Of a stretch of 64,000 nucleotides of DNA, positions 1,217-40,629 are shown piece after piece. The position numbers were made by a program, and so were the translations under genes. Where the stretch lies: NCBI GenBank assembly GCA_030789695.1, contig CM061142.1:357839486-357903485 (forward strand), in the 5' to 3' direction. The stretch comes from Scilla litardierei. Lineage: Eukaryota; Streptophyta; Magnoliopsida; Asparagales; Asparagaceae. The notes under the pieces were generated by a model that searched no databases, had not been told where the DNA came from, and worked only from the letters and a program-made list of their open reading frames with translations. Numbering within the stretch: the stretch's first letter is position 1; each line of letters starts with the position of its first letter.

Positions 1217-2128
1217 TGGATTAGATTCCACAAGAAATAGTGAACTAGAAACACATATGTAACTAGTATTACAAGTTACCTCGTCACTTCCACTCGTACA
1301 CGAACGAGCATAGTGACCGAGCTTGTTGCACTTGAAGCACTTGATTCTTTTCAAGTCTTTCTTCTTGTGCCATTTCTTGTGTCCACCCTTATGTTTGGGT
1401 TCCTTGGTAGACTCAGGTTGCTTATTACGTTCATTAGAAGACTTCGAACGATCTTTACGTTTCTTTCCCCCGTGTGAGGAACTAGCAACCATGTGCACTT
1501 CTGCACCTGGCTTGGCAGCCGCAAGCCGCTCTTCCTCTAATTCGAGGTGCTTGGAAACATCGTTGAAGGTCTTGATGCTCTCATTATGAGTGAGATGCAT
1601 CTTCATCTGATCCCACCCATTTGGTAGGGAACGTATGACTGCTTGGATTTGTTGCTCATCTGTGAGCACATGACCTGCGTCCTTTAACTCCGAGATAAGG
1701 TTCGCCATATGTCGCAGATGTTTCCCTATGGAATGATCTGGACGTTTCTTATATGTATCGAACTTTATAGTTAAGGCGCGAAGTTTGGACACCGATGTGC
1801 CACCGAACTTCTCCTCTAGCTTGGACCATATGTCCATAGCTAGGTCATGTTCTCGGAAGATGCACATTATGTCATCAGCCATACTGCTTAATAACGTAAT
1901 GCGCGCTATCTTATTCTTCTGAGACCAAGCATCAAAAGCTTCCTTGTCTCTTCGGTGTTGGGCCGTAGTGCCCAACTCGGGTTCAATCATTACGTTCTTT
2001 AGAGTTTCGAGCACTTCTTGCTCCTCTAAAACGTATTGTATCTTAATGGACCAAAGTTTGTAATTATCGCCGTTGAGTTTTTCACCTTTGTTTAACTCAG
2101 CGACGATATTCTTTGAAGCGGAAGACAT
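1202..2128 (-). pseudogene. Copia gag (UBN2-type) with CCHC zinc knuckle
   Basis: A long open frame on the minus strand. I choose the Met at 2128 (MSSASKNIVAELNKGEKL), because the more upstream Mets lie in AT-rich leader and copia gags start close to this motif. The N-terminal half has GDNYKLWSIKIQYVLEEQEV and the middle has KFGGTSVSKLRAL, both typical of plant copia gag (UBN2/DUF4219 families). A basic stretch of about 50 residues precedes the zinc knuckle CFKCNKLGHYARSC. The product would be the capsid and nucleocapsid protein. The frame ends at 1202, one frame away from the protease. Length, about 308 residues from this Met, is normal for gag alone; I list it as a pseudogene because the element is broken. 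Confidence 0.8.
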
Positions 2129-2283
2129 TTTACTTTTAAAATGCTGCAAAAGACACAAAACCGAAGGTTCGATCAAAAACATTGCATAAAAAATTCTTAA
2201 AATATAACTCCCACTTGAAATGATAATAGAATATTCCATTTGGATAGTTCTAAAATTCAAATCCCACTTGGAATTATATTATA

Positions 2284-3763: not shown

Positions 3764-4082
3764 CCCCCAAGGTAGTTATTTTAGGGTAAGTTGTTCCTTT
3801 GGAACAACTTAATTAAGGTGTACCATGATACATGGCACATTATAAGCTTAAGTTGTACCATATGCATGGTACAACATAAGCTTAAGATATTCCCCCTTTA
3901 TTAGCCATATGTCGCATGCACTTATGCATATATAATGCGACTTTCCCGCTCATACAGAGATCCTCTCCGCAAGGGAACAGATTCCCTTTGCACATGACTT
4001 CGTGTGCGCGACGTTCGAGGTCCGTATTCCCTCGTACATTCCCCACAAGGGTGTACAAACGTCTTCCATATCCAACATGGAG

Positions 4083-4835
4083 AACCATTAATCATCACAT
4101 AGTAAGTCGGCATTGAAATGCATTCCTTGATCCAACTAATGAAAGTATATCCGAACCCCATCTGATGCAAAATAAAATATACAAACTCCCTATTTACGCT
4201 GTCAAAAGCCATTCTGAGATCTAGTTTCAGACATGCTCTGGCACCCATGGGATTGCTAAAGTCTCTAATCTGCTCATGGGCTAGAAGGGTGCAGTCAGAT
4301 ATAAGTCTACCTTGTAAGAAAGCAGCTTGATTCGGGGAGACTAGATCATGAATAATCATCTTCAGTCTGTTGCAGATAATTTTGCTAATAATCTTGTATA
4401 TAACATTGCAACAGGCAATAGGCCTGTAATCACTAAGGCAGGAAGCATTAGAGTTTTTTGGGACAAGGGTTAAGAAAGTATGATTAACCTGGCGAAGAAG
4501 TGAGCCTGATCTGAAAAAAGATTGTACCGCCTCCACAACGTCAGCTCCAATTAGATTCCAGTTGTGCTGAAAGAAGAACCCATTATACCCTTTTGGGCCC
4601 ACTGCTTTGGAAGGCCCAATTTGGTGGACTGCCACTTTAACCTCTTCTGCAGTGACCCTTCTTTCCAGCCAACTAGCTGCTTCATGTTTCACACTCCTTT
4701 TGGGGACTAGATTAGGAAATACTCTCCAGTATTGAGATTGGTTGTATAGTCCTTCATAAAAATTAGATGCTTCAGATTTTATATCATTGTAGGACTTACT
4801 CTGAATAGCATTTTCATCCACTGCTTTTCTAAAAG
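4083..4835 (-). pseudogene. LINE ORF2 fragment: start of reverse transcriptase
   Basis: An open minus-strand frame from about 4835 to 4085 encodes the segment before and into a plant LINE (RTE/L1-type) reverse transcriptase. Landmarks in order are FYEGLYNQ, the KAVGPKGYNGFFFQ region, LVPKNSNASCLSDYRPIACC, AAFLQGRLISDCTLL and LRMAFDSVNREF. It stops at ...INGSP exactly where the copia E LTR begins (4077). The rest of the RT, including its YADD-box region, must lie beyond copia E, outside the window. The residues upstream of about 4835 on this frame are antisense to the plus-strand LINE, not part of this copy. Confidence 0.85.
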
Positions 4836-6736
4836 ACAGGTTACTTGCAGATTGCACTCTTCTTGCCCATGAACAGATTCGAGATTTTAGCAATCCTATG
4901 GGATCCAGAAGCTGTTTTAAATTGGACATTCGAAAGGCATTTGACAGTGTTAATAGGGAGTTCATACTTTTTCTCCTTCACCAGATGGGCTTCAGATATA
5001 CCTTCATTAATTGGATTTCTCAGTGCATATCCACCCATATGTTCTTAGTTTTAATTGATGGTTCCCCTGAAGGTTACTTTGGCTCCAATAGAGGTTTGCG
5101 CCAGGGCGACCCCCTTTCTCCGTATCTGTTTGTCCTCGTAATGGAAGCCTTCTCCCTCCTCATGTGTATGGCTGACTCTACTGGTGCAATGCATCCATTG
5201 CGTAGAACTGGATCAATATCTCATCTCCTCTTTGTGGATGATCTTTTAGTTTTCTGACGTGCAAATGCACATTCTTTTCGGGGTCTAAAGGATTTACTTG
5301 TGAAGTTTAATCTCATGTCGGGTCTTCATATTAATTGGGATAAGAGTTCTGCAATTTTCAGTAAGGGGGTACGTAATGCGAGAAGCTTATCTGATATGCT
5401 GGGAATTAAAATGGTCTCCTCTTTAACTACCTACTTGGGTCTCCCCCTTTCATCTAACTACCCCAGAGCATCTATGTTCTCTAGACTGGTCGATAAATGT
5501 AAAATGAGGCTTCTTGGGTGGTCTTCTTCACTGCTTTTTGTTGCTGGGAAAATTGAATTGGTCCGCTCTGTCATATACGGTATGGTTGCTTTCTGGATGC
5601 AAGCTTATTGCTTTCCTCCTTCTGTTATTAGAGCAATCAACTTAGTTTGCAGGAAATTTATTTGGGGTTGGAGAAATATTTGGGCCTGGCATGATATGTG
5701 TACTCCTAAACTCGTTGGTGGCGTGGGTCTGAGGCATTTGGCGGACTTGAATGTGTCCTCTGGTGTTCGTTTGACTTGGAGATTGCTTTCTAATAAAGGA
5801 ATTTGGGCAAATTATATGAGAAGGCGAAATTCTGTGGTTGAAAGTGGGTTTTATTCTGCCAAATCAGCCCCAACACACTCTGGAACTTGGACATTCATGC
5901 TTAAAAACCGTCACCTTTCACACCAACTGATCAAACGCACTATCAATGATGGGAAGTCAACTTCATTCTGGTTTGATAACTGGCATCCGAGGGGGCCGCT
6001 TTACCTATTACAAGATCCGAATGCGGGAACTGAAAAAGCTCGGGTTAGGGATTTCTGGAATGGAGATGTATGGATTAATGTGCCGCATATCCCTGGAGTT
6101 GGTAACCCACTACAGAATGTCACTTTGTGTGAAGAAGCTGATGCTTGGACTTGGGCTTCAGGGTGCTGCTCCTCATTGCGGGAGATCTGGGAGAAATCTC
6201 AAGAAAGCCGGCATGTGTTTCCCTATTTTGATTGTGTTTGGTTCAAGCAACATGTGCCGAAGTTCTCTCTTGCTTTGCTAAGGGCTCTGCTAGGGAAACT
6301 ATTAACCAAGGATCGGCTATACAGATGGGGAAGCGTCCCAAATCAATCATGTGTTCTCTGTTCTGGTAATGGGGTGGAGAGTATTGACCATATCTACTTT
6401 GAATGTGATTATACTAAATACATACTTGCTAGGACTCTTCTTAAGCTCGGTATTGCAAATCAGGTGCCATTATCACTTTCAGCAGTATGTGATCTTGTTC
6501 TATCCAGATTTAATAAGAGGGATCCAGTAAGTGTTTTGGCTAAAATTGCCTTATCTTCTATGGTCTGGCATATATGGAAGCAGCGCAACAAGCGTATCTT
6601 TGAGGAGAAGTTCACAACAAAGACTAGTTTGTTCGAGGAAATCACGGCGGATGTCAAAATTGCACTTTGCAGTTTAGAATATGATGATGTGTCTGACACA
6701 ACCCCTTTTGCAAATTGGGGTCTTGTAGCTGACTAG
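4820..6736 (+). pseudogene. LINE ORF2 3' half: reverse transcriptase and zf-RVT region
   Basis: Coding similarity begins near 4820 (AFLKDRLLADCTLLAHEQ) and runs in one frame to the stop at 6734-6736. Landmarks are KLDIRKAFDSVNREF, GLRQGDPLSPYLFVLVMEA, then the catalytic box as FVDD (LLFVDDLLVF), then GLHINWDKS and YLGLPL. The C-terminal zf-RVT domain shows RLYRWG, the cysteine/histidine cluster CVLCSGNGVESIDHIYFEC and VWHIWKQRNKRIF. An in-frame TGA at 5255-5257, where serine is expected, is the only stop after the shared segment. The endonuclease and RT start are missing, the usual 5' truncation of LINEs. The product would copy LINE RNA at a nicked target. Confidence 0.9.
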
Positions 6737-13894: not shown

Positions 13895-14593
13895 ATGGTT
13901 AGGACATGTTCCAGACGTCATCATTCGTCGCTGGCTCATCGTCCCTAACTTTCTTGGTGACCATAGAGTAAGTTTAGTACTGAATATGTTCGGGATTGGC
14001 CTGTTGGGGAACTTGACGCTGAGGAGCCAGAGGTGGTCCCTGTTGGGTTGATCTTGACGCTACCATAGTCTAGGTCACTGGATCATTAGCGTGTCAAGGG
14101 CAGTTCCTTACAATATGGTCAGGTGCCCCATACAATAAACACTAGTTCAACCACACGCGATAATCCTTCTTAACATGCCCCGATCAGTTACAATGGTGTC
14201 ACACCAATGTAGGTCTGGAGTTGACCAGGTTTGCAGGCCTCTTGAAGTTGGTGGTCTGAGTCGGTCGGAGATTACCCCAGGTTGGTTCCATAGGGTGCTT
14301 GCTTCCACCAGTTTGAAGCGCCTTCTTCTGCTTCATAATGAGCTCATGCTTTTTAGCATCATCGAATACGTTGTGGTGTGTAGTCAGATTCACAGAAGAC
14401 ATCAAAGCCTGATATTCCATGTCCAGACCCTGGAGAAACTGATATGTACGGTCTTCGGGTTCTTCCACCAAATGTGGGGAGAAACGACTAAGAATAGAAA
14501 ACTCTGCTTCGAATTCGTCAACATTCCGACTGCCTTGCTCTAGGTTGACGAAATGTTGTTGGAGCTCTCTATTTGCCAATCTGGGGAGGTACT
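13895..14593 (-). pseudogene. Element D gag, C-terminal part (split by element A)
   Basis: Minus-strand frame with FPRLANRELQQHFVNLEQGS, then FSRFSPHLVEEPEDRTYQFL, a retrotrans_gag domain of the chromovirus kind. A damaged CCHC knuckle and a Q/P-rich tail follow, ending near 13895. The frame was cut at 14593 by insertion of element A in the codons for AQYFPR; the first part of the gene is at 35513-35931. Stops lie between the gag domain and the tail. The product would be the capsid protein. Confidence 0.8.
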
Positions 14594-14888
14594 TGATCAC
14601 TCCATATTTTACACCTTTTTTCCGCATGATTGCATGCCATTTAGATCGCTCAAATCACGTTTTTCATGATTTATCGACAATATTACGATACTTTTCACGA
14701 TTTGTTGTTTTTGTCGTATTTCAGGAGATTTGGAGCGATTTGGAGTGATCCCGAGATACACCTACTCCAGAGTGTCACCGACGACATCCCCGAGGGGTAT
14801 TTTGCTATTGGAGAGGAGCGGAAGAAGAAAGAACGTCGTAGGAGCGACGAGGAGGCAAAAACACTCAGAATGGGCATTTCTAGTGTCT

Positions 14889-15269
14889 CACTCGGCCGAG
14901 TGAAGGAGTCACTCGGCCGACCAGAAGACACCGCTCGGCCGGCCAGATCGGACACGCACCAAGTGTGCACTCGGCCGAGCATCGGAAGCCACATCGGCCG
15001 AGTGACGAACCCCGTCCGCCCGAGTGGCACTCAGACGACGCCAATCAAAAACTCCCAACTTACTGTTTTTCGTCAGTCTGAGCATCAGAAGACCCACTCG
15101 GCCGAGTGGCAAATGCCGACCGCCCGAGTGAAGAGAAGCCCATCGGCCGAGTGACGACAACTCACTCGGCCGAGCGACCCCCGAAGTGAAGATCCCCAAG
15201 ACCCCAGACTTACTGGAAATTTTCAGGGTCTCTCACTCGGCCGAGCGACTTTTTTCACTCGGCCGAGTG
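14889..15269. repeat. CTCGGCCGAG palindrome array (left LTR of A)
   Basis: About twelve exact or near copies of the 10-bp palindrome CTCGGCCGAG, mostly as CACTCGGCCGAGTG, in 380 bp with irregular spacing of 10-70 bp. Variants keep the half-sites (ATCGGCCGAG, CCGCCCGAG, CTCGGCCGAC). The position is upstream of the TATA-like sequence, so U3. The right LTR has the same array at about 33981-34360. Confidence 0.9.
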
Positions 15270-15749
15270 AGCCGCGCTGCCTGTAGCGTAAATTGCGATT
15301 TTCAGGCTGCGCAGGGGCAATTTTGTCACAGTTTTTTGGGCGATTTTGGGGGGTATTTAACCCCAGTTTTTAACCTAGGTTATAGGGGGCTTTTTCCTGA
15401 CTTTTTAGCAGCTTTTTAGATTAAACTTTTTAGCTTTGGATTCTTGTGATTGGAGAGGAGAGAAAAGTTTATTTTTGTTGGATTCTTGGAGAACTCTATT
15501 GGTTTGTCTCCCTCTTCATTAAAAATCTCATTTTAATTGTTTATTTGAATATTGTGATGAATTCTATTGCTATTTCAATTGATTATTCTTGCATTTCCAG
15601 TATGATTTGTGAGTAGTCCTAACGTCTTGGGGCGTGGGGATGAACCCTACGAGCCCAATTCCTGATTTGTGATGATTTGGTAGAACTATTGCTAGAATTG
15701 CTATTAGGGTTAGTTTGGGATCGATTTATTACGGATAGCTAGGTGTTCA

Positions 15750-16053
15750 TATCGATTGGGATTTGCAAGAGATTGGATCCCAATTCGATAGGAAACCCTA
15801 GAAATCCGAATTGGGTTGAAATTGAGTTTCCGTAGTATCGGTTTGCAAGAGATTGGACCGATACTAGGGTTCTCGGTTGCAATTTCATACCGATACCCGT
15901 TTGCAAGAGAGTGGACGGGTAGGAACTATCCCAACCTAGGTCGTGGCCCGAGTTTGCACGAGAGTGGACTCGGGACGCGATTGAACGATGATGTTGATCC
16001 TAATGCTAGCTTGCCTAGGCTAGGGTTTGCAAGAGATTGGACCCAAATCTAGG
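15750..16053 (+). repeat. Five hairpins with a constant 16-nt loop (left LTR of A)
   Basis: Five copies of TTTGCAAGAGATTGGA or one- to two-base variants are each flanked by inverted repeats of different sequence. Stems are TATCGATTGGGA/TCCCAATTCGATA (15750-15790), TAGTATCGG/CCGATACTA (15833-15866), TACCCG/CGGGTA (15894-15921), CCCGAG/CTCGGG (15947-15974), and a weaker CCTAG..GGG/CCC..CTAGG (16014-16053). The array lies downstream of the likely promoter, so it would be in the RNA. The right LTR repeats it at 34842-35145. Confidence 0.9.
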
Positions 16054-16418
16054 TTAGCTATAGACCGGCAACAACGCGAGAGCGTGAGCTAGGTTTTACT
16101 TTCAGTTGCAACTAGTTCATCCAAAATTCTACCCTAGCAATTGTGATACCAATGAATCACATTGACGAGATACGGTGAGTAGCGGGGATTCCCTATTCCC
16201 TAGGCGTCTTTATCTGATTTTATATCTCGATACTTTGTCTGACGATTGTGACAAGATCACTGAAAGGCAAATTCCCCCTTTTCTGTTCCTATAGCCAGGT
16301 TGTTCGGAGAAGGCACTGTCATACGTCCTCCCTGTGTTCGATACCCGCTCGCCGCTACACCGTGCGCTTGCGGTAAAACTACACTGTTGGGTGTACGCCC
16401 GGGGCGCGATCAAGTTTT

Positions 16419-16436
16419 TGGCGCCGTTGCCGGGGA
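16419..16436 (+). other. Element A primer binding site (tRNA-Asp type)
   Basis: TGGCGCCGTTGCCGGGGA, six bases after the left LTR (spacer AGTTTT). It is complementary to the 3' end of plant tRNA-Asp(GUC), the primer known for Athila elements. Confidence 0.9.
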
Positions 16437-16553
16437 GGCGATTGTGTTTGATCCTACCACCCTAGTTATTTCTTTCTTTTTGTTTTATTTCTTTATTTTT
16501 ATCTAACCCTTCCATTATGCTAATCACTTCTTTGAAACTTTGTTTTCCCGTGC

Positions 16554-18216
16554 ATGTACACGAGATCCACTGCGGACCCCATTGATTTATTGTTTGATCC
16601 TGAGATCGAGCGTACATTACGGAGAATCAGAGCTGAGAGGAGACCCGATACGGAAGGGAGGTTTATGAACGTCCGGGAGACGCCTGAAGAGTTAACGGCA
16701 AGAATGGCGAGGATTATTTCCATTCGAGATAGGCTCCGGCCTAAGACTTCCTCCACGACCTCGTCCATAGCCATACCGGAGTTAGCGGCCGACAAGAATT
16801 TTGAGTTGAAGACCGGGCTTGTGGTTCTGATGCAGCAGGATCCATTTCATGGGAACGCCCATGAAAATCCCCACTACCACATCTAGCTCTTCCTATCAAA
16901 GTGCGCCACCTTCCAGATGCCGGGCGTTACCCTAGATGCCATCAGACTGCGCCTCTTCCCCTTCACATTAAAGGATAAAGCTCTTTATTGGTTGAGCACG
17001 CAAGCTGAGAGAGTCTTTACCACATGGGATGAGTTGGCGAGCGCGTTTATCGACAAGTTCTATCTGCCCTCCAAGACGGTAAAGATTAGGATTGCTCTCA
17101 TGTCCTTCAAGCAAGGACCTCAAGAGACACTCTACGAGGCTTGAGAGGGCTTCAAAGACCTGCAACATCAGTGCCCCCACCATAGCATTGAAGATTGGGA
17201 GCTAGTCCATAGCTTCTACAATGGTCTCCAACCAGGGACCAAGCAGATTATTGATGCCGCGGCAAATGGGGCCATCCTATTGAAGACTCCCGACGAAGCT
17301 ACGACCTTAATTGAGGAGATGGCCTCGAACAATCAACAATGGGGCGACGAGTGAGGACACTCTTCGTCCTCTTTGAAGCCATCTAGCATCTATGAGGCAA
17401 AGGCCGTAGCGGAGCTGACCAACAAGTTCGATTCTCTCCACAAGGTGGTGGAGAGACTGGAGAAGTATATTACGGAGCCCCAAGGAACCCCTTCCACATC
17501 CGCACCAACAAATCAAATGTGTGATTGGCAAGACCAATCCCAATCTATGTATTTGGGAGGAGAACACGGAGAGGGATCTTTGGAGCAAGTTCAATACGTC
17601 GCGGGGAACCAAGGATATTGGGCCAATCCAGCCACTAGAAACCATCCCGGTTTCTCCTATGCCAACAATGAAGGAGCATTGAACCTGCCGCAACAACTAC
17701 CTCAACAAGCTCGACCACAACAACAACAACAACAACATTATCCACCGAGGGGGCCTCCGCAACAAAATTTCCCACCAAAGTAACAAGTTGGACCCTATAG
17801 GCCGCCCGGATACAATCAAGGGTGGAGAAATCCAAACCCTCCACAAGCTCAACAACGATCTGAATTTGAAGCTAAGGTGGAGGAGTTTATGGTCGAGCAG
17901 AAGAAGATTAATGCTTCCTTGAAGGCGGGCCAAGACTCTCTTACAACTGTCATTGGACAAATTGCGGAGCAACTTGCGTTGCTCAATAGAAACAGTCAAC
18001 AGTTACCGGCTCAACCCGAGCAAAATCCACGGGGCAACACCGGCCATATCAACGCCGTGGTTGCAGTTACTACGAGAGGCGGGAAGGACACCACCCCCGT
18101 CATGATTCCTACCGAGAAGCCCGTGGTGGAGAGAGTAGAGCCAAGTGAGCCGGTCATTGAAGTTGAGACGGAGAAAGAGCCGCAAGGGAAGAAAAGTCCA
18201 GAGCGGAGCAATTGAT
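16554..18216 (+). pseudogene. Athila-type gag of element A
   Basis: One frame from the Met at 16554 to about 18215. After an N-terminal region ending in AADKNFELKTGLVV come the gag domain landmarks DAIRLRLFPFTLKDKALYWL, TTWDELASAFIDKF, PQETLYEA and CPHHSIEDWELVHSFYNGL, then IDAAANGAILLKTPDEA. A Gln/Pro-rich stretch (near 17690-17780) and the terminal segment KINASLKAGQDSL follow. Four stops interrupt it: TAG 16884, TGA 17142 (in the conserved EAW-E motif, W lost), TGA 17352 and TAA 17781. All are explainable by C-to-T or G-to-A changes. Near 18195 the frame shifts into protease. The product would be the capsid protein. Confidence 0.88.
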
Positions 18217-19240
18217 TGAAGAGAGGCGTTTTATGCCACCGATTCCATTCCCTCAGAGGCTTGCTAGAGCAAAGATGGAGAAACGGCTAGCCAAGTTTCT
18301 CGAATATTTAAGAGGGGTAAGCCTCAACATTCCTTTCCTCGACGCTATCATGGAAATCCCGACATACGCCAAGTTCCTAGAAGATTTGATCACGGGAAGA
18401 AAGAGGAAGGAGAAAATCATGCTCGCTGAGGAGGGGACGTGGTTCACCAAGAGAGAGAAGGAGCCCGCCAAATTCAAAGACCCGGGGAGTTTCCGAATTC
18501 CTTGCACCTTAGGCGGCGTCCCTCTACAAAAGGCGTTAGTGGACTTAGGGGCTAGTGTTAGCCTCATGCCTCTCTCTATGTTCCTAAGACTAAACACCGG
18601 CACAAAATTGAAGCCTACCGACATGCGGATACAACTAGCCGATGTTCGGATCACAAGGCCGGTAGGGATCGCAGAGGACATCCCGTTACAAGTCCCGGGG
18701 GAATATGTTTGCCATGTGACTTCGTGATCATGGATGTCAAGGAGGAGGGAGATACGTCGCTAATACTTGGACGCCCGTTCCTTGCCACCGCCGGTGTCAT
18801 TGTCGACGTACGTGAAGGGACTCTAACATTGAATGTCGGCAACATCGAGGTGGAGCTTCATATTCCCAAGGCAATGAAACACATGCCTTATCATGAGGAG
18901 CTGGACTATATGGACCTCCTTGACGAGGTTATTGAGGAGGCGATCCCCCATTCCATCGGCGCTCTATTCGAGGAAGACTTTGAGGAAGGGCCGGACTTAG
19001 GCCAAGAAGAAAAAATGGAGCATTCCCCCGACCCCTCCATGGAAATTGATGAAGGCGACGTTGATGTCGCGAGAATACGAGAGCTCTGCAAGCTCTCAAA
19101 GACGAAGACTCCAAAGAAATCCACACCTATACAAAAATCGGTGTCACCGGTGAAGCCGAGGCCTGGAGCAAGCACTAGCTTGGGGGAGTCACCCCCCAAC
19201 ACTACCCGAGGCAAAGGAGCACCGAGGAAGAACGCCCCGT
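18200..19240 (+). pseudogene. Athila-type gag C-terminus and aspartic protease of element A
   Basis: The frame starting near 18200 gives IEERRFMPPIPFPQRL, then PTYAKFLEDLITGRKRK, FKDPGSFRIPCTLGG and the retropepsin core LVDLGASVSLMPLS. In Athila the active-site triad reads D-L-G or D-S-G at this place. A one-base shift near 18697, in a GGGGG run, moves the frame to LPCDFVIMDVKEEGDTSLIL, then GRPFLATAGVIVDVREG. Acidic sequence follows to about 19240, where LTR-end sequence starts. In an autonomous element reverse transcriptase should come next; here it is replaced by the second PBS region. Confidence 0.85.
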
Positions 19241-20420: not shown

Positions 20421-22484
20421 ATGCCGCCCTGGACACGGCCTCGCACCAGGAGAGCTTCCGCCAAGCGGAAGCGGCCGGATGAGCCCAGCCCCTCCCACAA
20501 GGTGGAGGACTCTCCTCCGCCTGCACCACCACACCCCGTTCATCCCGTACAGCCTGCAGCCCCCGTTCACCACGTACAGCCACTCCCTGCCGACCCACAG
20601 CCACTACCACCACCACCGGCTCCACTTGTCGGGCCGCTGGGGATTACGTTCCGGGACGACGCACACCGCGTCGTTTTTGAGCGCATTTCCCAGCGCTCGA
20701 TCGTACCCTCCAGGTTCGCACACCTTGCAGACCTAGGACACCTGGGGGTACTTGAGGGGATGATCACGTTGTATGACAACGTGGGTTGGCGAGATTTCTT
20801 CCAAGTGTCGGCGGACACCTTCGTCCGTCCAACACTTGAGGTGCTTAGTTCTATCGCCCGGACCGACGAGGGATGCTCGTTTAGGTTCATGGACCGAGAG
20901 TGCCAGGTCACTCTCGGTATGATGAGAGCATTCTTTTCATGGCCCGATGTCCCCAGGGCCGACCGTGGTTATGCCCCCACTCACATTCCCCCACCTTCCT
21001 TCGATTCCGGCACTTTCTGGGCCCGGATCACGGGTTTACCTGCTGCCTTCGACCCTAGTAGGGCCAAGGCCTCGGCCATCGTCCACCCTTGCCTTTGCAT
21101 AGCTCAGCACCTTATGGCGACTACCTTTTTGGCGAGGTATGCGCCTGGGACGATGTCCACGCTGGATCTTTATATGCTCTACGCGATGACACGCCCCAGA
21201 GCTCTAGCTAGGGATAGTGACGAGTTGGTCCCCGCCGTCGTGATTGATATCGCGAGCTGGTTTTTGGACCGCATCATCGTATCGGTGAGCGCTCGCTCAC
21301 CGATATGCTGCGGCGGTCTGATCACCCTGCTCGCCCTGATGACCGGCGAGGATCTTCCTGCTGACCTGCGACGAGCCCCGGGCCCCACTTCACTGTCCAT
21401 AGACGTCATGGCCCGGATGAAGATGCTACGTCTGCACGGTCAGCGGCACTGGGTTTGGTTGCACGGTCCCTACGGTGCGGATTACATGATCCTTCCGAGC
21501 CCAGCTCGGACGTAGATAGCACCAGCACAGGTGGACTGGCTTCCGGCGATGGATCTCCTGATCCCCGCCGCCTACGTGCTTGAGGCTGAGGAGGCCGAGC
21601 AGGCTGAGCAGGCACACGCTGCACCCGCTGACCCCGTGGCCCCTCAGCAGCCTGATATTTCTGCTGCTCCCGACACCTCTGTCCACACTTCTGCCGGTGT
21701 CAGGAGTACACTCGCTGAGACCACCCCCACTACCTCCACGCTCACCACCACTCCCACCACAGCTGGCCCACTGTCTGTTGAGCCCGTTTCCTCCGCCCTA
21801 CCTGAGTGCCCACCGACTATAGTTGAGAGCGGAGAGCCCTCTTTTGCTACTGTCATGGAGACCGTGGTTGCCACCTCTGTCTCCACCGCAGCCGTTTTTT
21901 CTGAGAGTGTCGTGACGTCTGTTCTCACGTCTGTGTCACCGACCTCTCTGGCCACCTTGTCGCCACTTTTATACTCCACTTCCGCTGCTGCTGCTTCCAC
22001 CGCATACCAGCCTGCGCCCCAGCCTCGCCCTGAGGCTAGGCCCACACTTGTGAGCACATCACCCTACCTCCACATGCCTGCTGAGCCCATCCACTACACC
22101 ACCCGAGTCCGCCAGCCCCATCCTGCACTGCACAGACAGGTGCGTCCCTCTGCACCACCTCCCCCCGACACTGTCCTTCAGAGCATTCGTGCTCTCGAGG
22201 GGGCGGTGAGTGCCCTCAGAGGTGACCTCAGGACCATGTCTGCCACAGTCACCGCTATGGCCAGCCGCTTCGACCTACTTCCGGGCATTCACTATTGCCT
22301 CACTCAGATTCTCGAGCGGCTTCCTCGCGTACCCACACCCACCCAGCAGGTACCTACCCCCACTCCTACACACACCCAGCCTGCTTCCACACCCACACCC
22401 ACACCCAGCCAGCAGACTGTTCCCCATCCACCACCTCCTCCACCTCCGCATCGGGACGGAGACGGCGTAGCCCCACCCTCTTAG
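20421..22484 (+). pseudogene. ATHILA ORF-1-like protein (one internal stop)
   Basis: One frame of 688 codons from ATG 20421 to the stop at 22482-22484, interrupted only by TAG at 21513-21515. The N-terminus is basic (RTRRASAKRKR) and then proline-rich. Residues of about 75-360 carry the conserved part: FERISQRSIVPSRFAHLADL, GVLEGMITLYDNVGWRDFF, TFVRPTLEVLSS and MDRECQVTLGMMRAFFSWP. This resembles the plant ATHILA ORF-1 family, whose role is not established. The part after the stop is Ala/Glu- then Ser/Thr/Pro-rich, with a possible short coiled coil (SIRALEGAVSALRGDLRTM) and a Pro/Thr/Gln-rich end. Few mutations compared with gag-pro upstream suggest a different history or weaker decay. Confidence 0.75.
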
Positions 22485-24121: not shown

Positions 24122-27100
24122 TGTAACGACCAGGTTTTTCGATACGTTTTATTCGCATTCTTTCATTGTGTTTATCTCTTCGTATCCGTAGTTGAGACGT
24201 ATCAGACCCTGTACCCATACCAGCCTCTAGCCTTTTACGTATTAGCTATTAATATCATTAACTTTGACATTATATTTATTACTAGCTTTTATAATTAATA
24301 GTATTTCTCTACTATGAGACATCCTTTTAATAATTTCTTTTTATATAATTCAAACTTTTAAAAATTCGAATGTTTTGAAAGTGTTTCTTAATAAAACCTA
24401 TTTAAACATATAATTAAAGTGATTAGCATTATTGACCCCTAAATAACTCCCCATCAATGTCTTCTTTTCAACTTTCCTTAGAAACTTTTAGTGTTTAATT
24501 TGGCCTAATCAACTCCGTTAACTCTAGAACCCATTTCCTTATTTAACCAACCTATTCACTAAGCCATCCTACGTTTCGGACCCATGGCCGCACCCAACTT
24601 AGCTAAACCTATGCCTAGCTTTCCTCGTGCTACGAATTTCATCCCCCCACACGCACACAGCTTGTGCAATTCTTTTCATTTGGACCTAGGCCTAAGCTTA
24701 TAAATAAACCCTTAGGCTATGTCACCTACTCCCTATAACAATAAGAAATGAACCTAGGCTAAACTAGGACACAGCAACCCTACACTTCCTATGTGAACCT
24801 AGGGTCTCTTTTTCTTCAACCTAAAACCCAAAGGCCTAAAGCCCCACACGAGCACCCCTAGAGAGAACCCTACTGACTTTATAAAAAACCCTAGGTCCCC
24901 TTTTATTTCTTCTCCCATCAGTAGCCTTGTATAAATATATACAACCATATATATTCTAAAAAAAACCCTAGGCCTCTATTATCAGCCGCCCCCAGCCTAC
25001 AAAACTCCTACATACATTTAGACCTAGATATCGACAATACTAAACCCTAGGGCAGGGCTGTGCTCTCATTCGTTTTTCCTCAAACACCAAACCGAGAACC
25101 ACAGCCGCCTTCGACCTCTCCTTCGCAACACCAACCCATGACAGCCCTCCTTCTTCCTCCTCTTCACGCCAACACAGGCCACGCCCTAGAGCTCGCAACG
25201 CCGCAGCCTCCTGTTCGACCCGCAACCCATGCCGACGGCCTCCTCCACTGCCTCCACGCGACGGCGCAGCAAGCATCTCCCCGCCTCAGCAGCCTCCCCT
25301 CATGCACACTCACGTCGAGGGACTACTCCGATGCCAGCCTCCCTCCGTGCGCACGACAGCCCGAGCAGCCTCCTTCCACCTTCGCACAACTCGTCTCCCC
25401 ACAACAGCATCTCCGCCACTCGCCGTCGAACATCGAAACCCGTAAGTTTCCCTTCCGCACGAACAGAAATTTTATAGGGAATAAGGTTTTATATAAGTAA
25501 GTTTCATATGTTATTAAAATATGTTAGGTTCCTTCAGTTTGTTGGTAGACTGCGTATAAGTTGTGTGAGCTGTAAGATATGTTAGTTCATTAGAAATATT
25601 AATGTCAGTACCCCTTTACCCTATGTCGGCTTATTAATAATGGAACTGTGAATTTTCAATGCAACGGTAGATTTATAAACTAGGTATTGGATATCACATA
25701 GACAAATGATGCTAGTAAGTACTGCTAACTTTTGATTACAAAGTGTTGCAACTGACCTCCCAGTACCTATAAATTATAATGCTTATAATACTATTGTGGC
25801 ATGTTATAACAGTACTTATAAATAGCTGTATATGTAATGAGCTATAATAGGTAGTATAGGTTATATATATAAGCGTTTGTTATATAGGTTGGTTATATCA
25901 TGTTGGTATGTATGTTAGTGACCAGTGAGTATGAACGTTAACTTTTAATGACGTGTTAATTCTTTAGCTTGATACCAAATTCCGTTGATACAGATATACC
26001 GTGCCTCCCGTAGCAATCACCTGGGCACCCTAGTCACCGAAAAACAGGCAAGTATGCAATTAAATATGAATTTTCGAAGTTTAATTATTATTACGTCATT
26101 TTTTTACTTTGATCTGCATATCTTGAAAATTGCACGTAAAATGACACATGAAACTGTTTCCATAATGTCCTAGATTAAAAATGTGACATTTTGACATATA
26201 TCTCGATGGGTTTCAATTTTGGACATTAGCAGAAAAAAATTGTTTCCCGTAACCAGTAATTCATCTCGACATCCCTTCAATTTTTGTAAATGTTGTGCAC
26301 TATGAAACATTGACAACTAGAAATGAATGAATATCTTGCTTGGACATTAACGAGAGTGACATCGTGAAATCGTGCGCCTCAAAGGAGAATTCGTGATTCG
26401 TGATGTCGTGTGAGTCGACTAGGCCGGCTCGTGTTCCGGCAAACTTTTGGGTGGGGTTAGGGTTGAGCGGCCACTGGGCGTATGAAAGGTACTCTCCTCA
26501 AGAGCACCACCCGATGCGGTGGGTTAGTGTCAATCATGGGAAGCCCCCGTGATAGGAACGACCTTCTCATCACGACCTAAAGGCGAGAACCCTAGATTAG
26601 AAGTGAATTTTTGACATGGACTTTGAACGCTAACTTGGTCATCGTGGATATTGAAATGCTAACAAACTCGGGAAAACTTACTTAAATTCTTGCAACTGCT
26701 TAGAACTACATGCTAGGGATGTTTACTTTTCGTTTCATCACAATTTGTCTCGTAAATTCTATTATAGTCATCTCTTTTAAATATTTAATGCTTTCTAAAT
26801 TCATATCAATTGCACATTCTTGCCTTGGGATGCTAATGTCTTCTTGCAGACCTTGCTGACATACATTCATGTTTTTGGATGTATGTCAGATCTCGAGTTT
26901 GAGCACTCGGAGGATCCTCCCGAGACACTTGACTTAGAGAGCCAGAGTACGTCGTAGATGCCGAGTCACTTTCTGCAGAAGACTAGAGTCCCTTCCGTCA
27001 CTATTTTGAGTTTTGGTTTCTGTAACTTGTAGTAGGAATAGTGCTCTGTTGTAATTTCCTTAGCCCTGCTGTGGCTTATCTTGTAATTTCGTGTACGCCT

Positions 27101-27279
27101 TATATATCTGGATGTGGTATTTATTTTGAATGTTCTGATTGTTCTGATACGCAAATGCAAGGACCCTTTTTCTGTGTTTTTATCACAGACGCTTATTGAA
27201 CTCGAGCTTTACCGCTCCAGTTCAAGCGGACCGCGTAATGCCCACGCTTCCGGTGTCTTTTGGGAAGCGGGGCGTTACA
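24122..27279 (+). repeat. Element B left LTR
   Basis: Candidate TATA box TATAAATATATA near 24932. A 146-codon open frame (25060-25500), Pro/Ser/Ala-rich, follows in the presumed transcribed part. ACCCGTAAGTTT at 25438 is a good splice-donor consensus. The LTR ends GAAGCGGGGCGTTACA. No protein family is recognised. Confidence 0.92.
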
Positions 27280-30216
27280 GGTTTTAGTGGTGGCCCATGC
27301 AGGTCTTGCAACTGCGAAATTCAGAACAATGAGAACACTTTTCGTTAGCCAAAACATCCAGGATTAGTTCGTACGCAAATTACTCGAATAACTGTCTCAG
27401 CACGATAGGAAGCCCAATGTCAGGATGATAGGAAGAGTTAGTTAGATGCTCGTGCTCATTAGTTAGACACCTTTGCCACAACTTCGTATTATAATCTTAG
27501 GAGTCACCCTAGCTTTTCTCTGATCGTATTAGCTTCATTAGTCGTTAGCTTAAGTTTTATCGAATCTAGGGCCTAACCCACCGTAGCGATCATCGCCAAG
27601 CCAATTGAACCTGAGACGCCAGCAATGAGTAGACTTCGAGACGTAAGACATCCCAGACCCATAAGATCCCGACCTTGACCCTCTATGAACCACCACCTCG
27701 GCTTCCCTATCACAGTCTAGTTCTTTGACGAACCTTAGTGCTAAACCTTAGTCGATCAATGATTATTTTTCCCCTGATTTTACTTTTCCAATCATTACAC
27801 TTCCGTGTTAATGATCGTAGGAAGCCATCGTAGTGTAATCACGGAGTACTTCTTAATCGTACTTACGTTTCAATCGTCGAACCTGATCCTTGTCCTCGAT
27901 TCACATAAACTCTTCAGATCCGCCATCTTTAACTTTGAACCTCTCCTTCTAGAAAGTATTTTCGATATTTCATTTATTGAATTCTTCCTAAGTTTAAAAT
28001 TCCTTCGAAAACTTTTACTTAAATTCCCTACACTTCAGTCGACTTAAACCCAATCTTAATTATGAAACTCTTTTGGTGCGATCTTTAACCACTATCTTAT
28101 AACGATTTCCTTACATCCATCTTTCGCTCTTCTATTTCACCTAACTACTCTATTTTTCTCAGGCAATGAACTTTTTAAAATCTTATTCCTAAGTCGCTAG
28201 TTCCAATGTCACCTCCTTTAATGTATTTCGAAGCGGTCATTGATACATACTTTTAAAATACTTTCCTAAGTTAAATAGAACTTAAAAATCCTGTGTGTTA
28301 GTTTTATTATCATTGTCTTCAAAAATTTTAAGAAAAGAAAATTTTCTGTTTTCTCTTGACAAGCCTATTATTCAGTTGCAAAACGAGCACTACAACACTA
28401 TGTCCATATTACTCTTCACATATTATTGGACTGATCACATTTTACATTTTAATCCCTACCGTATGCTCGCTATTCTACATAAATTATAGCGATGTTATTT
28501 TTCCCTCACATATCCTTATCTTCCTAATTATTTAATTATTCTTAGGTATTTTGTGTCGCCCAACCAAATTACTCGCTTATCCATACCACCTCCGGAGCCG
28601 TCCATCACAGCATTAATTCATTACATCTTTCAACTCTGAATTCAGCACTATTGATTAGTTTTCGCATTGGTGCTTATGAGTGCTTATGTCAGCTTTAATA
28701 TAAGTATAGTGGGACCATTAGCAGTGATTGTAGTTTTGTTGTTGTGCATGTGTATAAATAGTGGGTGTGGGCCCGTGCGTGTGAATCTCTATGTACCACT
28801 TAGGTCTACATGTGTTTTCCCTTAATATATTAGTATAGTGTGATGATCTATTATGTCGTGTGTACATGTACGTACGGTAAATTGTGATAGGTATGTATTC
28901 AGACGAGTGTAGAGTAGTAAGTGTTATATTTATATTTAGGTGAGTGATTAGCTATATCACTATAGGGATACCTGAGCGTGATTGATTTGGTCTTGGCTAG
29001 TTACTAGGCATGTATGTACCTTAACCGTACTTGTTAATGGCTGTATAGTACGCTGATACAGTGATGTGCATGTTAAGTATCATGGTTGTGTGTGCGGATT
29101 TATTGTGTGATTTGTATGTTAGTATGTATGGCGTGTACTTGCGCGTATATATGTACGTGGTTAGTTATAGGTACGTAGGTATATATATATTGTATAAATA
29201 AGTGTGTTGCATGCATAGTAAGATTATAATGTTACCCCTACGGGATGATGTGTGAGCATGTGTTTACCAGGAGGTATGCATGGACGTATGTTTGTGACTA
29301 CGTATATGTGAATGTATGAAATTGTATACTTGCCTATGTGGATTACCATGGTTGTGTATACCGGTGAGTGTATATGTGATCTATATAGATACGAGATAAG
29401 AGTGTGGTAGTGTGAGTATGTATATGAATGTGAAAATGATATATGTATGGGGATTTGGAAGTGTGTGCTATATGATTAAGTATATGTATATGGATGTATA
29501 TGGTTTCATTATAATGTATGTGTGTCTGGGATAGAACGAGCTTAGTGCCTAAGTCCTCTCACCCATAGGTCAACCTATTTAAGGAAGTCTGAAGACGGAC
29601 TTGATCTTAAGGTGGGCAGATTACGTTGACCCTAGTGCTATGGGTAAGGCTTATAAAATCCGTGTAGGGTGTAGGGTAATACGTGCATGTATATATGTGT
29701 AGTGATATGTATTATGCGTTATGTAAAAGTGATCATACGGATGTAGTGTTAATAGACTAAAAATGATTATATTTGTGTGTTAGTGGTGTGTAGAAGTGAT
29801 ATGTGATACTATATCATTATAGATTGTGAGTGTATAAGATATATGGTAGTACATGCATTTGTAATATCGTGAGTGTGCTAAGTGTTGGCACACCTACATC
29901 TAGTAAATTGATGTGGTAGGTGTTAATATTCACCCGAGTATAAATCAGTTGGATTATATTCGTAGGATGATATTATATTGGACGTATTATGTTAATTTAT
30001 AACTGGTAACGTATGTGTGTGTGTTGTTACTACTATTAGCATGGACGTTGATTAATGGTATCGGTAGTAGTACTTTTGGTGTTGATGTTAATATGAGATA
30101 TACTATATAGATATGACATGAAGATTATTTATGGTGTGTATAGAGTTACCATTATGTTTTCCGGTGCCTTAGCCGATAAGATTCCGAGGACGGAATCGTC
30201 TTTAAGGTGGGTAGAA
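27280..30216 (+). other. Element B interior, non-coding
   Basis: It begins GGTTTTAGTGGTGGCCC then ATGCAGGTC, the probable primer binding region. 27500-28700 is AT-rich with no gene. 28700-30100 is strongly T/G-rich on the plus strand, full of GTATATGTG-type words. Two PPT-like sites are present: CTTAAGGTGGGCAGATTACG (about 29608) and the terminal TTTAAGGTGGGTAGAA (30201-30216). Confidence 0.8.
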
Positions 30217-33380: not shown

Positions 33381-33685
33381 AATTTTACAATTATTCCGTT
33401 TTTCATGCTATATCAATATTCTTGGGTTTTCCATTTCTATTTGCACCATTATACTATGATATCGAAATAAAAGTCTTTGACATGTGTTTTACATTCGGTG
33501 CATGCTATATGAATAAGCAAAACCCACGTCCTGAGAAAAATGATCTAGCAGCTTCCCTCTTCGCTTTCTTCTTTCTTCTTCGTTTTTCATTTTCCGTTTT
33601 TCGTCGTTTTCGTTTTCTGAATCCACCGGGTTCGCCTTTTACTTATCTTCCTCGAGGACGAGTAAGAGGTAAGCTTGGGGGATTT
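33381..33685 (+). other. Element A 3' region end and polypurine tract
   Basis: The remainder of A after element B. It has TTCCTCGAGGACGAGTAAGA then GGTAAGCTTGGGGGATTT directly before the right LTR at 33686. The purine run AAGCTTGGGGGA is the likely plus-strand primer, the same word that occurs internally at 22814 and 23849. Confidence 0.75.
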
Positions 33686-35512
33686 TGATCACTCCATATT
33701 TTACAACTTTTTTCCGCATGATTGCATGCCATTTAGATCGCTCAAATCATGTTTTTCACGATTTATCGACAATATTGCGATACTTTTCACGATTTGTTGT
33801 TTTTGTCGTATTTCAGGAGATTTGGAGCGCTTTGGAGTGATCCCGAGATACACCTACTCCAGAGTGTCACCGACGACATTCCCGAGGGGTATTTTTCTAT
33901 TGGAGAGGAGCGGAAGAAGAAAGAACATCGTAGGAGCGACGAGGAGGCAAAAACACTCAAAATGGTCATTTCTAGTGTCTCACTCAGCCGAGTGAAGGAG
34001 TCACTCGGCCGACCAGAAGACCCCGCTCGGCCGGCCAGATCGGACACGCACCAAGTGTGCACTCGGCCGAGCATCGGAAGCCACATCGGCCGAGTGACGA
34101 ACCCCGTCCGCCCGAGTGGCACTCAGACGACGCCAATCAAAAACTCCCAACTTACTGTTTTTCGTCAGTCTGAGCATCAGAAGACCCACTCGGCCGAGTG
34201 GCAATTGCCGACCGCCCGAGTGAAGAGAAGCCCATCAGCCGAGTGACGACAACTCACTCGGCCGAGCGACCCCCGAAGTGAAGATCCCCAAGACCCCAGA
34301 CTTACTGGAAATTCTCAGGGTCTCTCACTCGGCCGAGCGACTTTTGTCACTCGGCCGAGTGAGCCGCGCTGCCTGTAGCGTAAATTGCGATTTTCAGGCT
34401 GCGCAGGGGCAATTTTGTCACAGTTTTTTGGGCGATTTTGGGGGGTATTTAACCCCAGTTTTTAACCTAGGTTATAGGGGGCTTTTTCCTGACTTTTTAG
34501 CAGCTTTTTAGATTAAACTTTTTAGCTTTGGATTCTTGTGATTGGAGAGGAGAGAAAAGTTTATTTTTGTTGGATTCTTGGAGAACTCTATTGGTTTGTC
34601 TCCCTCTTCATTAAAAATCTCATTTTTATTGTTTATTTGAATATTGTGATGAATTCTATTGCTAATTCAATTGATTATTCTTGCATTTGCGGTATGATTT
34701 GTGAGTAGTCCTAACGTCTTGGGGCGTGGGGATGAACTCTACGAGCCCAATTCCTGATTTGTGATGATTTGGTAGAACTATTGCTAGAATTGCTATTAGG
34801 GTTAGTTTGGGATCGATTTATTTTGGATAGTTAGTTGTTCATATCGATTGGGATTTGCAAGAGATTGGATCCCAATTCGATAGGAAACCCTAGAAATCCG
34901 AATTGGGTTGAAATTGAGTTACCGTAGTATCGGTTTGCAAGAGATTGGACCGATACTAGGGTTCTCGGTTGCAATTTCATACTGATACCCGTTTGCAAGA
35001 GATTGGACGGGTAGGAACTATCCCAACCTAGGTCGTGGCCCGAGTTTGCACAAGAGTGGACTCGGGACGCGATTGAATGATGATGTTGATCCTAATGCTA
35101 GCTTGCCTATGCTAGGGTTTGCAAGAGATTGGACCCAAACCTAGGTTAGATGTAGACCGGCAACAGCGCGAGAGCGTGAGCTAGGTTTTACATTCAGTTG
35201 CAACTAGTTCATTCGAAATTCTACCCTAGCAATTGTGAGACCAATGAATCACATTGACGAGATACGGTGAGTAGCGGGGATTCCCTATTCCCTAGGCGTC
35301 TTTATCTGATTTTATATCTCCATACTTTGTCTGACGATTGTGACAGGATCGCCGAAAGGCAAATTCCCCCTTTTCTGTTCCTATAGCCAGGTTGTTCGGA
35401 GAAGGCACTGTCATACGTCCTCCCTGTGTTCGATACCCGCTCGCCGCTACACCGTGCGCTTGCGGTAAAACTACACGGTCGCTCTTTTGGGTGTACGCCC
35501 GGGGCGCGATCA
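33686..35512 (+). repeat. Element A right LTR
   Basis: 1827 bp. It repeats the left LTR, including the CTCGGCCGAG array (about 33981-34360) and the constant-loop hairpins (34842-35145), and lacks the 8-bp deletion seen in the left copy. It is followed by the duplicated GTACT. Confidence 0.92.
34842..35145 (+). repeat. Five constant-loop hairpins (right LTR of A)
   Basis: Same five units as at 15750-16053, with identical arms in units 1-4. The third loop reads TTTGCAAGAGATTGGA here (one base different on the left) and the fourth TTTGCACAAGAGTGGA. Confidence 0.9.
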
Positions 35513-40623: not shown

Positions 40624-40629
40624 AGTTTT

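What the first reader, a model, noticed from the sequence alone, without database searches (positions are those of the whole stretch)
15750..16053. Array of hairpins with one invariant loop and five different stems in the element A LTR
Five consecutive units keep the 16-nt sequence TTTGCAAGAGATTGGA (or 1-2 changes) while the flanks differ completely between units. In each unit the flanks are self-complementary: 12 bp with one bulge, 9 bp perfect, 6 bp perfect, 6 bp perfect, and a weaker fifth. Constant loop with freely varying but always pairing stems is what selection on RNA (or single-stranded DNA) structure would leave. Both LTRs carry it, so it was in the mobile RNA. Serial hairpins with a shared loop recall packaging or dimerisation signals of retroelements, but I know of no description of this one. 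Function is inference; the pairing is read directly.
Basis: partly seen in the sequence, partly recalled or inferred. Interest (0 to 1): 0.88.

Follow-up and report, generated by a model that had tools for sequence, protein, structure and literature searches.

The report
Covarying GAGA-tipped hairpin leader of Athila
A very abundant plant jumping gene carries five hairpins that share one conserved tip while their stems change in matched pairs; together with a short reading frame in front of them they likely form an RNA leader that ribosomes are predicted to jump over and that the element's own coat protein would recognise for packaging.

Summary
The 16-nt "loop" is itself folded: U-A/U·G, U·G, a UG bulge, three pairs, and a GAGA (GNRA) tetraloop. 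The host genome (3.68 Gb) holds 139,488 exact copies of the 16-mer. All 38 loci fetched by it carry five-unit arrays, as do 22 of 40 loci fetched only by the primer-binding site (36 of 54 counting sites already covered). Stems change by compensatory pairs. From strictly Watson-Crick reference pairs, one-sided changes give 152 G·U against 36 A·C, so the sense RNA is kept.

The hairpins crown a ~580-nt closed domain with the anatomy of a plant-pararetrovirus ribosome-shunt leader. In 59 of 62 array entries a short uORF stops 9-14 nt before the basal helix, 55 of them at GAG-UAG, a conserved unpaired spot in a diverged leader. AUGs are common inside the domain and rare after it. Four of seven other leader types show this by a strict rule, six by a looser one. 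One related family has hairpins sharing a CAAAA loop. Elements with and without gag share the array, which fits a trans-recognised packaging tag.

Structure is shown; shunting and Gag binding are inferred. Family-A copies come from one genome.

The parts
14593..16412 (+). 5' LTR of element A (Athila type)
   Evidence: 97.2% identical to 33685-35512
33685..35512 (+). 3' LTR of element A, carrying the same domain (offset +19092)
15557..15616 (+). upstream ORF (19 codons from 15557, 4 codons from 15602), ending GAG-UAG-UCC 9-12 nt before the basal helix; proposed shunt take-off
   Evidence: stem-proximal uORF in 59 of 62 array entries; GAGUAG columns 0.79-1.0 identical and mostly unpaired
15626..16204 (+). 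closed RNA domain; basal helices 15626-15632/16198-16204 and 15635-15640/16190-16195, inner closing helices 15668-15671/16158-16161 and 15677-15682/16147-16152
   Evidence: RNAalifold on 27 non-redundant copies, whole leader and domain alone; pairing controls
15732..15808 (+). hairpin 1, apex 15762-15777
15812..15887 (+). hairpin 2, apex 15842-15857
15894..15921 (+). hairpin 3, apex 15900-15915
15939..15982 (+). hairpin 4, apex 15953-15968 (CAC-GAGA-GUG form)
16007..16060 (+). hairpin 5, apex 16026-16041
16205..16516 (+). AUG-free stretch after the domain, UA-rich at its start; proposed landing and scanning region
   Evidence: AUG list
16419..16436 (+). primer-binding site
   Evidence: sequence; 22-mer around it used; which tRNA it binds was not tested
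16554..16886 (+). start of a gag-like frame (interrupted in this copy)
   Evidence: tblastn with a family-A gag
18167..18727 (+). open frame with a weak aspartyl-protease match (E 0.00055, below the curated cut-off)
20421..21515 (+). ATHILA ORF-1 family (PF03078) frame
34718..35296 (+). the same domain in the 3' LTR
   Evidence: offset; fold z of its inner part

Best explanation
Five hairpins with one conserved GAGA-capped tip, kept by matched base changes across copies, crown a domain predicted to fold in what is likely the 5' leader of Athila-type RNA; ribosomes are predicted to shunt around this domain and the element's Gag would bind the tips as a packaging tag. Proposed steps: (1) a capped RNA starts upstream of the uORF; (2) ribosomes translate the short uORF (3-4 codons, or up to about 19 from an upstream AUG in the same frame) and terminate, mostly at GAG-UAG, a few nt before the basal helix; (3) the released 40S passes over the domain, with its many AUGs, to the AUG-poor stretch after it and scans to the gag AUG; (4) because ribosomes do not melt the domain, its five near-identical tips stay folded; (5) Gag made from the same RNA, or from a relative's RNA, binds the repeated tips and diverts the RNA to particle assembly and reverse transcription from the PBS just downstream. 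Shown: conserved pairing, the tip motif, sense-strand preference, conservation, uORF position, AUG distribution, and sharing between gag-bearing and gag-less elements. Inferred: the transcript start, shunting, and Gag binding.
For: Structure: 27 non-redundant arrays (<=97% identical, from 40) pair at 95.3% of cells over 187 pairs; permuted partners reach at most 92.3%, partners slid by 1-3 columns 29-46%; 244 double-change cells against a permuted maximum of 127. Strand: 152 G·U against 36 A·C among one-sided changes of strictly Watson-Crick reference pairs; 127 two-sided changes keep a Watson-Crick pair. Tip: tetraloop GNRA in 128 of 135 units; closing pair A-U in 102, C-G in 27, U·G in 3. 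PBS-selected sample: 22 of 40 loci carry arrays, GNRA in 109 of 109 units scored. Conservation: tips 0.94, domain stems 0.82, unpaired domain 0.75, upstream leader 0.56. Shunt layout in family A: uORF stop 9-14 nt before the base in 59 of 62 entries; fold of the whole aligned leader puts the outermost long-range helix at 15626-15632/16198-16204 (P 0.91), with the stop codon and spacer largely unpaired and the GAGUAG columns 0.79-1.0 identical amid columns mostly below 0.6. Other leader types: 4 of 7 have a 2-10 codon uORF just before their outermost long helix (single-anchor background 0.04-0.12). Known shunt leaders RTBV and RTSV have a 7- and 6-codon uORF ending GAG UAG UCG 7-8 nt before the basal helix, and the CaMV leader carries a coat-protein-binding packaging signal at the top of its stem-loop (PMC5902531, passages). 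Packaging: of the 22 PBS-selected arrays, 11 have a gag match within 2.5 kb and 11 do not. Precedent: gag-less BARE2 is packaged into BARE1 particles (PMC3735527, passages including the abstract).
Against: No RNA, translation or binding data. The transcription start is assumed from a TATA-like sequence. A single-sequence fold of the whole window leader does not show the basal helix and pairs the uORF stop region with 15581-15588 (P 0.85); only the alignment folds and the shorter 631-nt fold close the domain there. Spacing in copies was measured by a fixed offset from tip 1, not by folding each copy. By the strict outermost-helix rule c1, c5 and c6 fail; by the looser any-long-helix rule 6 of 7 pass, but shifted controls pass at 0.21-0.61 each, about 2.6 of 7. 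Folds of c3-c6 rest on 1-3 sequences, and the uORF is probably inherited between types. c1, c1b, c4 and c6 do not use GAG-UAG. Isolated CAC...GUG tips are predicted to prefer a shifted hexaloop. Unit 5 flanks show no copy-specific matching. c2, c3 and c6 have the uORF without a detected shared-loop array, so the two features are separable. Gag-less copies may share the leader by descent alone, and a gag displaced by an insertion beyond 2.5 kb would be missed.
Confidence: 0.52

Rival explanations
1. Packaging only: the hairpin array is a multivalent Gag-binding signal, and the uORF layout is incidental or merely lowers translation.
For: Repeated near-identical tips suit protein recognition; array shared by gag-bearing and gag-less elements; a related family has a different shared loop, CAAAA.
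Against: The conserved unpaired GAGUAG stop before the basal helix in family A, the AUG-poor stretch after the domain, and the same layout in part of the other leader types.
Confidence: 0.2
2. Shunting or translation control only: the domain is a stable obstacle and its tips are tertiary-structure parts, for example GNRA-receptor contacts, without Gag recognition.
For: uORF before a long-range helix also in c2, c3 and c6, which have no detected shared loop; GNRA loops are common tertiary contacts (recalled).
Against: Stability alone does not explain five copies of the same bulge, wobble and tetraloop at 0.94 identity.
Confidence: 0.15
3. The domain is a decoy or source for Dicer-made small RNAs, protecting the rest of the element from silencing.
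For: A decoy strategy is discussed for CaMV and RTBV (PMC5902531, passage); hairpin-like folding is one proposed trigger of Athila siRNAs (PMC3276544, passage).
Against: Helices are short and interrupted; the tip sequence is conserved more than the stems, opposite to what dicing alone would need.
Confidence: 0.05
4. DNA-level palindromes (protein binding sites or cruciforms).
For: The U3 of this LTR does hold DNA palindromes (window z down to about -8 on either strand); the domain also folds on the minus strand (z -8.4).
Against: 152 G·U against 36 A·C; conserved U·G wobble and UG bulge; stems vary between units and copies.
Confidence: 0.03
5. Kissing-loop dimerisation signal.
For: UUGCAA in most tips is self-complementary (sequence).
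Against: It lies in the bulge and stem of the covarying fold; exposed loops GAGA, CAAAA and ACUU are not self-complementary.
Confidence: 0.05

Closest known systems
Pregenomic RNA leader of plant pararetroviruses (CaMV, RTBV; also RTSV)
   Same: Short uORF (ending GAG-UAG in RTBV and RTSV) just before the basal helix of a large structured leader, UA-rich stretch after it; in CaMV a coat-protein-binding packaging signal at the top and a primer-binding site downstream of the landing sequence (PMC5902531, passages)
   Different: Here an LTR retrotransposon; the top is an array of five hairpins with one tip; spacing 9-14 nt rather than 7-8; shunting untested
BARE1/BARE2 packaging system (barley LTR retrotransposons)
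   Same: Gag-less elements packaged by a relative's Gag, with conserved packaging signals (PMC3735527, passages including the abstract)
   Different: Different kind of LTR element (copia type, recalled); no serial shared-tip hairpins in the passages seen
MS2-type coat-protein hairpins and retroviral multi-hairpin psi signals (recalled)
   Same: Variable stem, bulge, short stem, conserved tetraloop, several copies
   Different: No sign of common descent; the binding protein here is unknown
Sirevirus palindromic repeated motifs (PMC2829016, passages)
   Same: Repeated palindromes in plant LTR elements
   Different: Those lie upstream of the TATA box or near env and are discussed as DNA cis-elements
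Rfam release 15
   Same: Searched as the public set of known RNA families
   Different: No match in the window at gathering scores

Membership tests
Athila lineage of Ty3/gypsy elements | ATHILA ORF-1 domain | tested here: met
   PF03078, E 2.4e-08, above cut-off; also in another family-A copy, L130
Athila lineage of Ty3/gypsy elements | RT/IN phylogeny | not testable with these tools
   the 4 family-A gag-bearing copies examined match a relative's polyprotein only in its gag-protease part, so there is no RT to place
Plant-pararetrovirus-type shunt configuration | short uORF terminating just in front of the basal helix | tested here: met
   family A: 59 of 62 entries, 9-14 nt by fixed offset; 9 nt to the outermost helix of the whole-leader alignment fold. 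Other leader types: 4 of 7 by the outermost-helix rule, 6 of 7 by any long helix
Plant-pararetrovirus-type shunt configuration | stop context GAG UAG UCG (reported for RTBV and RTSV; not defining for all) | tested here: met
   GAG-UAG in 55 of 59; GAGTAGTC in 26 of 62; GAGTAGTCG in 5 of 62; c1, c4, c6 and c1b use other codons
Plant-pararetrovirus-type shunt configuration | UA-rich landing sequence after the stem | tested here: inconclusive
   best 40-nt window at percentile 66-100 of its leader in 8 types, but the maximum over 25 windows was taken
Plant-pararetrovirus-type shunt configuration | ribosomes actually shunt | not testable with these tools
   needs translation assays
Retroelement packaging signal | present in elements that lack gag | tested here: met
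   11 of 22 PBS-selected arrays have no gag match within 2.5 kb; mobilisation itself not shown
Retroelement packaging signal | bound by Gag and needed for packaging | not testable with these tools
   no binding data
Kissing-loop dimerisation site | exposed self-complementary loop | tested here: not met
   covarying fold exposes GAGA
Known Rfam RNA family | match above gathering score | tested here: not met
   0 matches in 64 kb

The most novel reading that the evidence does not exclude
Athila-type LTR retrotransposons translate Gag by ribosome shunting over a leader domain whose repeated, family-specific hairpin tips (GAGA, CAAAA, ACUU) are an address code read by each family's Gag, a code that gag-less elements copy in order to ride along.
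Probability: 0.35. Interest if true: 0.9.

Novelty: new variant of a known kind. Interest (0 to 1): 0.82.

Why it matters
Athila elements are abundant in plant genomes, and how their RNA is translated past long AUG-filled leaders and then chosen for packaging did not appear in the papers I found. A covarying, uORF-fronted domain with five near-identical tips gives both questions a concrete, mutable target. It would extend the shunt layout of plant pararetroviruses to LTR retrotransposons, and it could explain how gag-less elements stay mobile.

Tried and rejected
Rejected or weakened: kissing-loop dimerisation (exposed loops not self-complementary); DNA palindrome or cruciform (G·U over A·C); open 16-nt loop (folds and covaries); chance repeat. 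A rough binomial for the shunt layout in 7 of 8 leader types was dropped on re-checking: in c1 and c6 the helix I had used is not the outermost, and several helices per leader were eligible. One search replaces it with a strict rule (4 of 7 other types) and a shift control. I left the two odds as they were, because the same call strengthened family A (whole-leader fold, unpaired conserved stop) as much as it weakened the other types.

Led nowhere: the exact 16-mer in viral contigs gave 29 stretches, each with a single match; an array pattern gave 0 in genome contigs and 0 in viral contigs; the PBS in viral contigs gave 4 hits, by eye not plant LTRs; the ORF-1 protein search gave 5001 candidates, none at E <= 0.001; a gag search of viral contigs gave 14 pattern hits, none confirmed, and of plasmids no match. 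A strict automatic scan found nothing even in the window and was loosened. A seed-based scan of other leader types found no shared-loop family. A shared-loop scan with 60 shuffles per sequence found 4 units in the window array, but reached only 3 in 2 of 7 members of cluster c1 (their shuffles reached 3 once in 420) and 1 in L035 (shuffles reached 3 in 3 of 60); the CAAAA and ACUU arrays were then read by pattern and fold, so they are weaker than family A. Two of the 7 c1-cluster members (L116, L117) lack the CAAAA array. In one search one of 22 arrays (L103) was scored with four of five units. In one search the first-apex anchor was wrong for some loci; one search repeats the count with a chained anchor.

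Ten paper searches (listings seen) showed no title or abstract start that describes these hairpins or shunting in an LTR retrotransposon; five papers were seen by passages only.

Full report
OBSERVATION. The array is real. A blind scan for hairpins that share a loop but differ in stem finds, in 64 kb and both strands, only the two LTRs of this element; 20 shuffled windows give none. The stretch 15668-16161 folds at z = -9.9 on the + strand and -8.4 on the - strand; its 3' LTR copy at -6.8 (60 shuffles each).

WHAT CARRIES IT. LTRs 14593-16412 and 33685-35512, 97.2% identical, flank an interior with a primer-binding site at 16419-16436, a gag-like start at 16554, a weak protease match and an ATHILA ORF-1 domain. 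A second element with its own 3.16-kb repeats (24122-33375) appears nested inside. The host genome has 3.68 Gb and holds 70,207 + 69,281 exact copies of the 16-mer; the reversed control gives 0.

THE TIP. Each 16-mer folds as U1-A16 (or U·G), U2·G15, bulge U3G4, C5-G14, A6-U13, A7-U12, loop GAGA. Across 27 non-redundant arrays, 135 units: GNRA in 128; all three inner pairs standard in 127; pair 7-12 is A-U in 102, C-G in 27, U·G in 3, and A·G, A·C and G·U in 1 each; bulge UG in 132; U2·G15 in 129. The double change A-U to C-G occurs in units 4 and 5 of different copies. The 38 loci of this sample were fetched by an exact tip in at least one unit, so they are selected for tips. A second sample was fetched by the primer-binding site: the first 55 listed sites on contig C1, less 14 that already lay in the first sample (all array carriers) and one 88 nt from another, leaving 40. 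Of the 40, 22 carry arrays, which makes 36 of 54 with those left out; one of the 22 (L091) is the array of L067 again. GNRA in 109 of 109 units scored, inner pairs standard in 103; flanking 6-nt arms pair at 5.46 of 6 against 3.37 for random partners, and at 5 or 6 positions in 91 of 109 against 24%. Tips were found with up to 4 mismatches, which favours but does not impose these values. For isolated hairpins, ViennaRNA prefers a shifted hexaloop for the CAC...GUG form and for window unit 3; the covariation of 7 with 12 speaks for the GNRA register.

THE STEMS AND STRAND. 40 arrays, 69-99% identical, median 80%. RNAalifold on 27 gives 187 pairs in helices of 3 or more; cells: 4092 Watson-Crick, 728 G·U, 82 A·C, 131 other of 5033. 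Because that structure was predicted on the sense strand, a strand-neutral test used only strictly Watson-Crick pairs of the window copy (80 pairs, 26 other copies): 1652 cells unchanged, 127 two-sided Watson-Crick, 152 one-sided G·U, 36 one-sided A·C, 61 one-sided other, 16 two-sided G·U, 33 two-sided other, 3 gaps. Neutral decay should make G·U and A·C alike (reasoning, not a call); the 4:1 excess says the + strand RNA is under selection. Cells count sequences, not events. Controls: 95.3% paired against a permuted mean of 91.8 (max 92.3); pairs with a double change 37 against a mean of 26.0 (max 35); double-change cells 244 against 94.3 (max 127) in 200 permutations; slid partners 28.7-46.2%. 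Unit 5 shows no copy-specific arm matching (0.56 own against 0.72 other copies with 5 or more pairs); units 2, 3 and 4 do, unit 1 hardly (1.00 against 0.94).

CONSERVATION. Mean pairwise identity: tips 0.940, domain stems 0.824, domain unpaired 0.745, upstream leader 15385-15620 0.559, downstream LTR 16210-16412 0.684; one short island in the bin from 16335 reaches 0.886.

THE ENCLOSING DOMAIN AND THE uORF. Folding the whole aligned leader (15385-16412, 27 copies) puts the outermost long-range helix at 15626-15632/16198-16204 (P 0.91), followed by 15635-15640/16190-16195 (P 0.98); 15600-15622 is largely unpaired (P paired at most 0.19), and the six columns of GAGUAG (15611-15616) are 0.79-1.0 identical while most neighbours lie at 0.25-0.6. 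The domain-only fold gives a base at 15629 (P 0.96). A single-sequence fold of the whole window leader does not show this base and pairs the stop region with 15581-15588. The uORF (4 or 19 codons, one stop) ends at 15616. In 62 array entries (61 distinct), 59 have a uORF stop 9-14 nt before the equivalent of 15629, placed by a fixed offset from tip 1; last codon plus stop is GAG-UAG in 55 of 59, GGU-UGA in 3, CGU-UGA in 1; in those 59, 156 of 221 AUGs in the 245 nt upstream end at that same stop. The other three: L045 and L076 lack it, and the L091 stretch is cut too short to show it (its array is L067's). AUGs inside the domain average 9.2 per copy; between domain and PBS they average 0.55 and are absent in 26 of the 40 entries whose stretch reaches the PBS, against about 3 expected from composition in the window copy.

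Other leader types from the PBS sample were folded apart: c1 (5 sequences), c1b (2, split from the c1 cluster), c2 (5, with window element B), c3 (3), c4 (2), c5 (1), c6 (1). Outermost long helix (span over 300 nt) with a 2-10 codon uORF ending 4-13 nt before it: c1b, c2, c3 and c4 yes; c1, c5 and c6 no; single-anchor background 0.037-0.121. If any long helix counts, 6 of 7 pass, against about 2.6 expected from shifted controls. AUGs after the domain total 4 over the eight leaders against about 27 expected; inside, 85 against about 68 (domain ends for c1 and c6 are those of the helix next to the uORF). Stretches after the domain are UA-rich in part (percentile 66-100).

KNOWN PARALLEL. A review (PMC5902531; passages) describes the shunt layout of plant pararetroviruses: a 5'-proximal short uORF ending in front of the basal helix of a large stem-loop, a UA-rich landing sequence, and in CaMV a coat-protein-binding packaging signal on the top that shunting ribosomes leave unmelted; in RTBV and RTSV the uORF ends GAG UAG UCG, 7 and 8 nt before the helix. 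The match in parts is close; membership in function is untested.

OTHER FAMILIES. The 18 PBS loci without the family-A array fall in 6 clusters. Cluster c1: 5 of 7 members (L083, L093, L095, L097, L119) carry five to seven hairpins with loop CAAAA (one unit CACAA in three of them) and different stems, with paired changes between copies (for example CUCUC/GAGAG against CUCCC/GGGAG). An element of this cluster has gag, RT, RNase H and integrase domains. L035, a low-GC contig in a Blastococcus assembly that by its content (gag, PBS) is most likely plant contamination (inference), carries five CC-ACUU-GG hairpins before the PBS. c4 has two CC-GCGA-GG hairpins. In c2, c3, c5 and c6 no shared-loop array was detected.

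GAG-BEARING AND GAG-LESS CARRIERS. Within 2.5 kb after the PBS, 11 of the 22 PBS-selected arrays match a family-A gag and 11 do not; of the latter, six match another open frame (from L131) well and five weakly. Domain identity between gag-bearing carriers (13, with L054 and the window) and the two gag-less groups averages 0.81 and 0.83, with the same tips and stems differing in part by paired changes. The four gag-bearing family-A copies examined match a related polyprotein only up to its protease part, so both kinds would seem to need pol from elsewhere. This fits a signal read in trans, as for BARE2 and BARE1 (PMC3735527; passages including the abstract), but common descent of the LTR is not excluded.

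LIMITS. One genome for family A; loci from the first 7.2 Mb of one contig plus the window; no transcript, probing, translation or binding data; transcription start inferred from a TATA-like site near 15354 (sequence).

Noticed in passing
window 14890-15275 (U3 of element A): Three exact and several near copies of the DNA palindrome CACTCGGCCGAGTG (counted by eye); window element B has CCGATCGG-centred repeats in its U3 (about 38940-39510). They resemble the CGG-CCG motifs reported for Sireviruses.
   Followed up: no
window 38712-45939: A second element with a related PBS (family c2) and 1.9-kb LTRs, a uORF ending GAG-UAG before a large structured leader, but no detected shared-tip array; its leader fold z is -2.6.
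   Followed up: partly
L034 and L035: Low-GC contigs in Streptomyces clavifer and Blastococcus endophyticus assemblies hold LTR-retrotransposon PBS sequence (L035 also gag), probably plant contamination.
   Followed up: partly
window 24122-33375: Element with 3.16-kb terminal repeats 99.1% identical, apparently nested in element A.
   Followed up: no
L083, L093, L095, L097, L119: Arrays of 5-7 hairpins with loop CAAAA and different stems before the PBS.
   Followed up: partly
L127, L129, L131: Gag-less elements with the family-A leader and an open frame of 278-496 aa without Pfam match; parts resemble family c2 interiors, suggesting chimeric origin.
   Followed up: partly
window 1202-2260 (-), 3922-4965 (-), 5300-6736 (+): Copia-type gag, a reverse transcriptase domain and a zf-RVT domain of other retroelements.
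   Followed up: no
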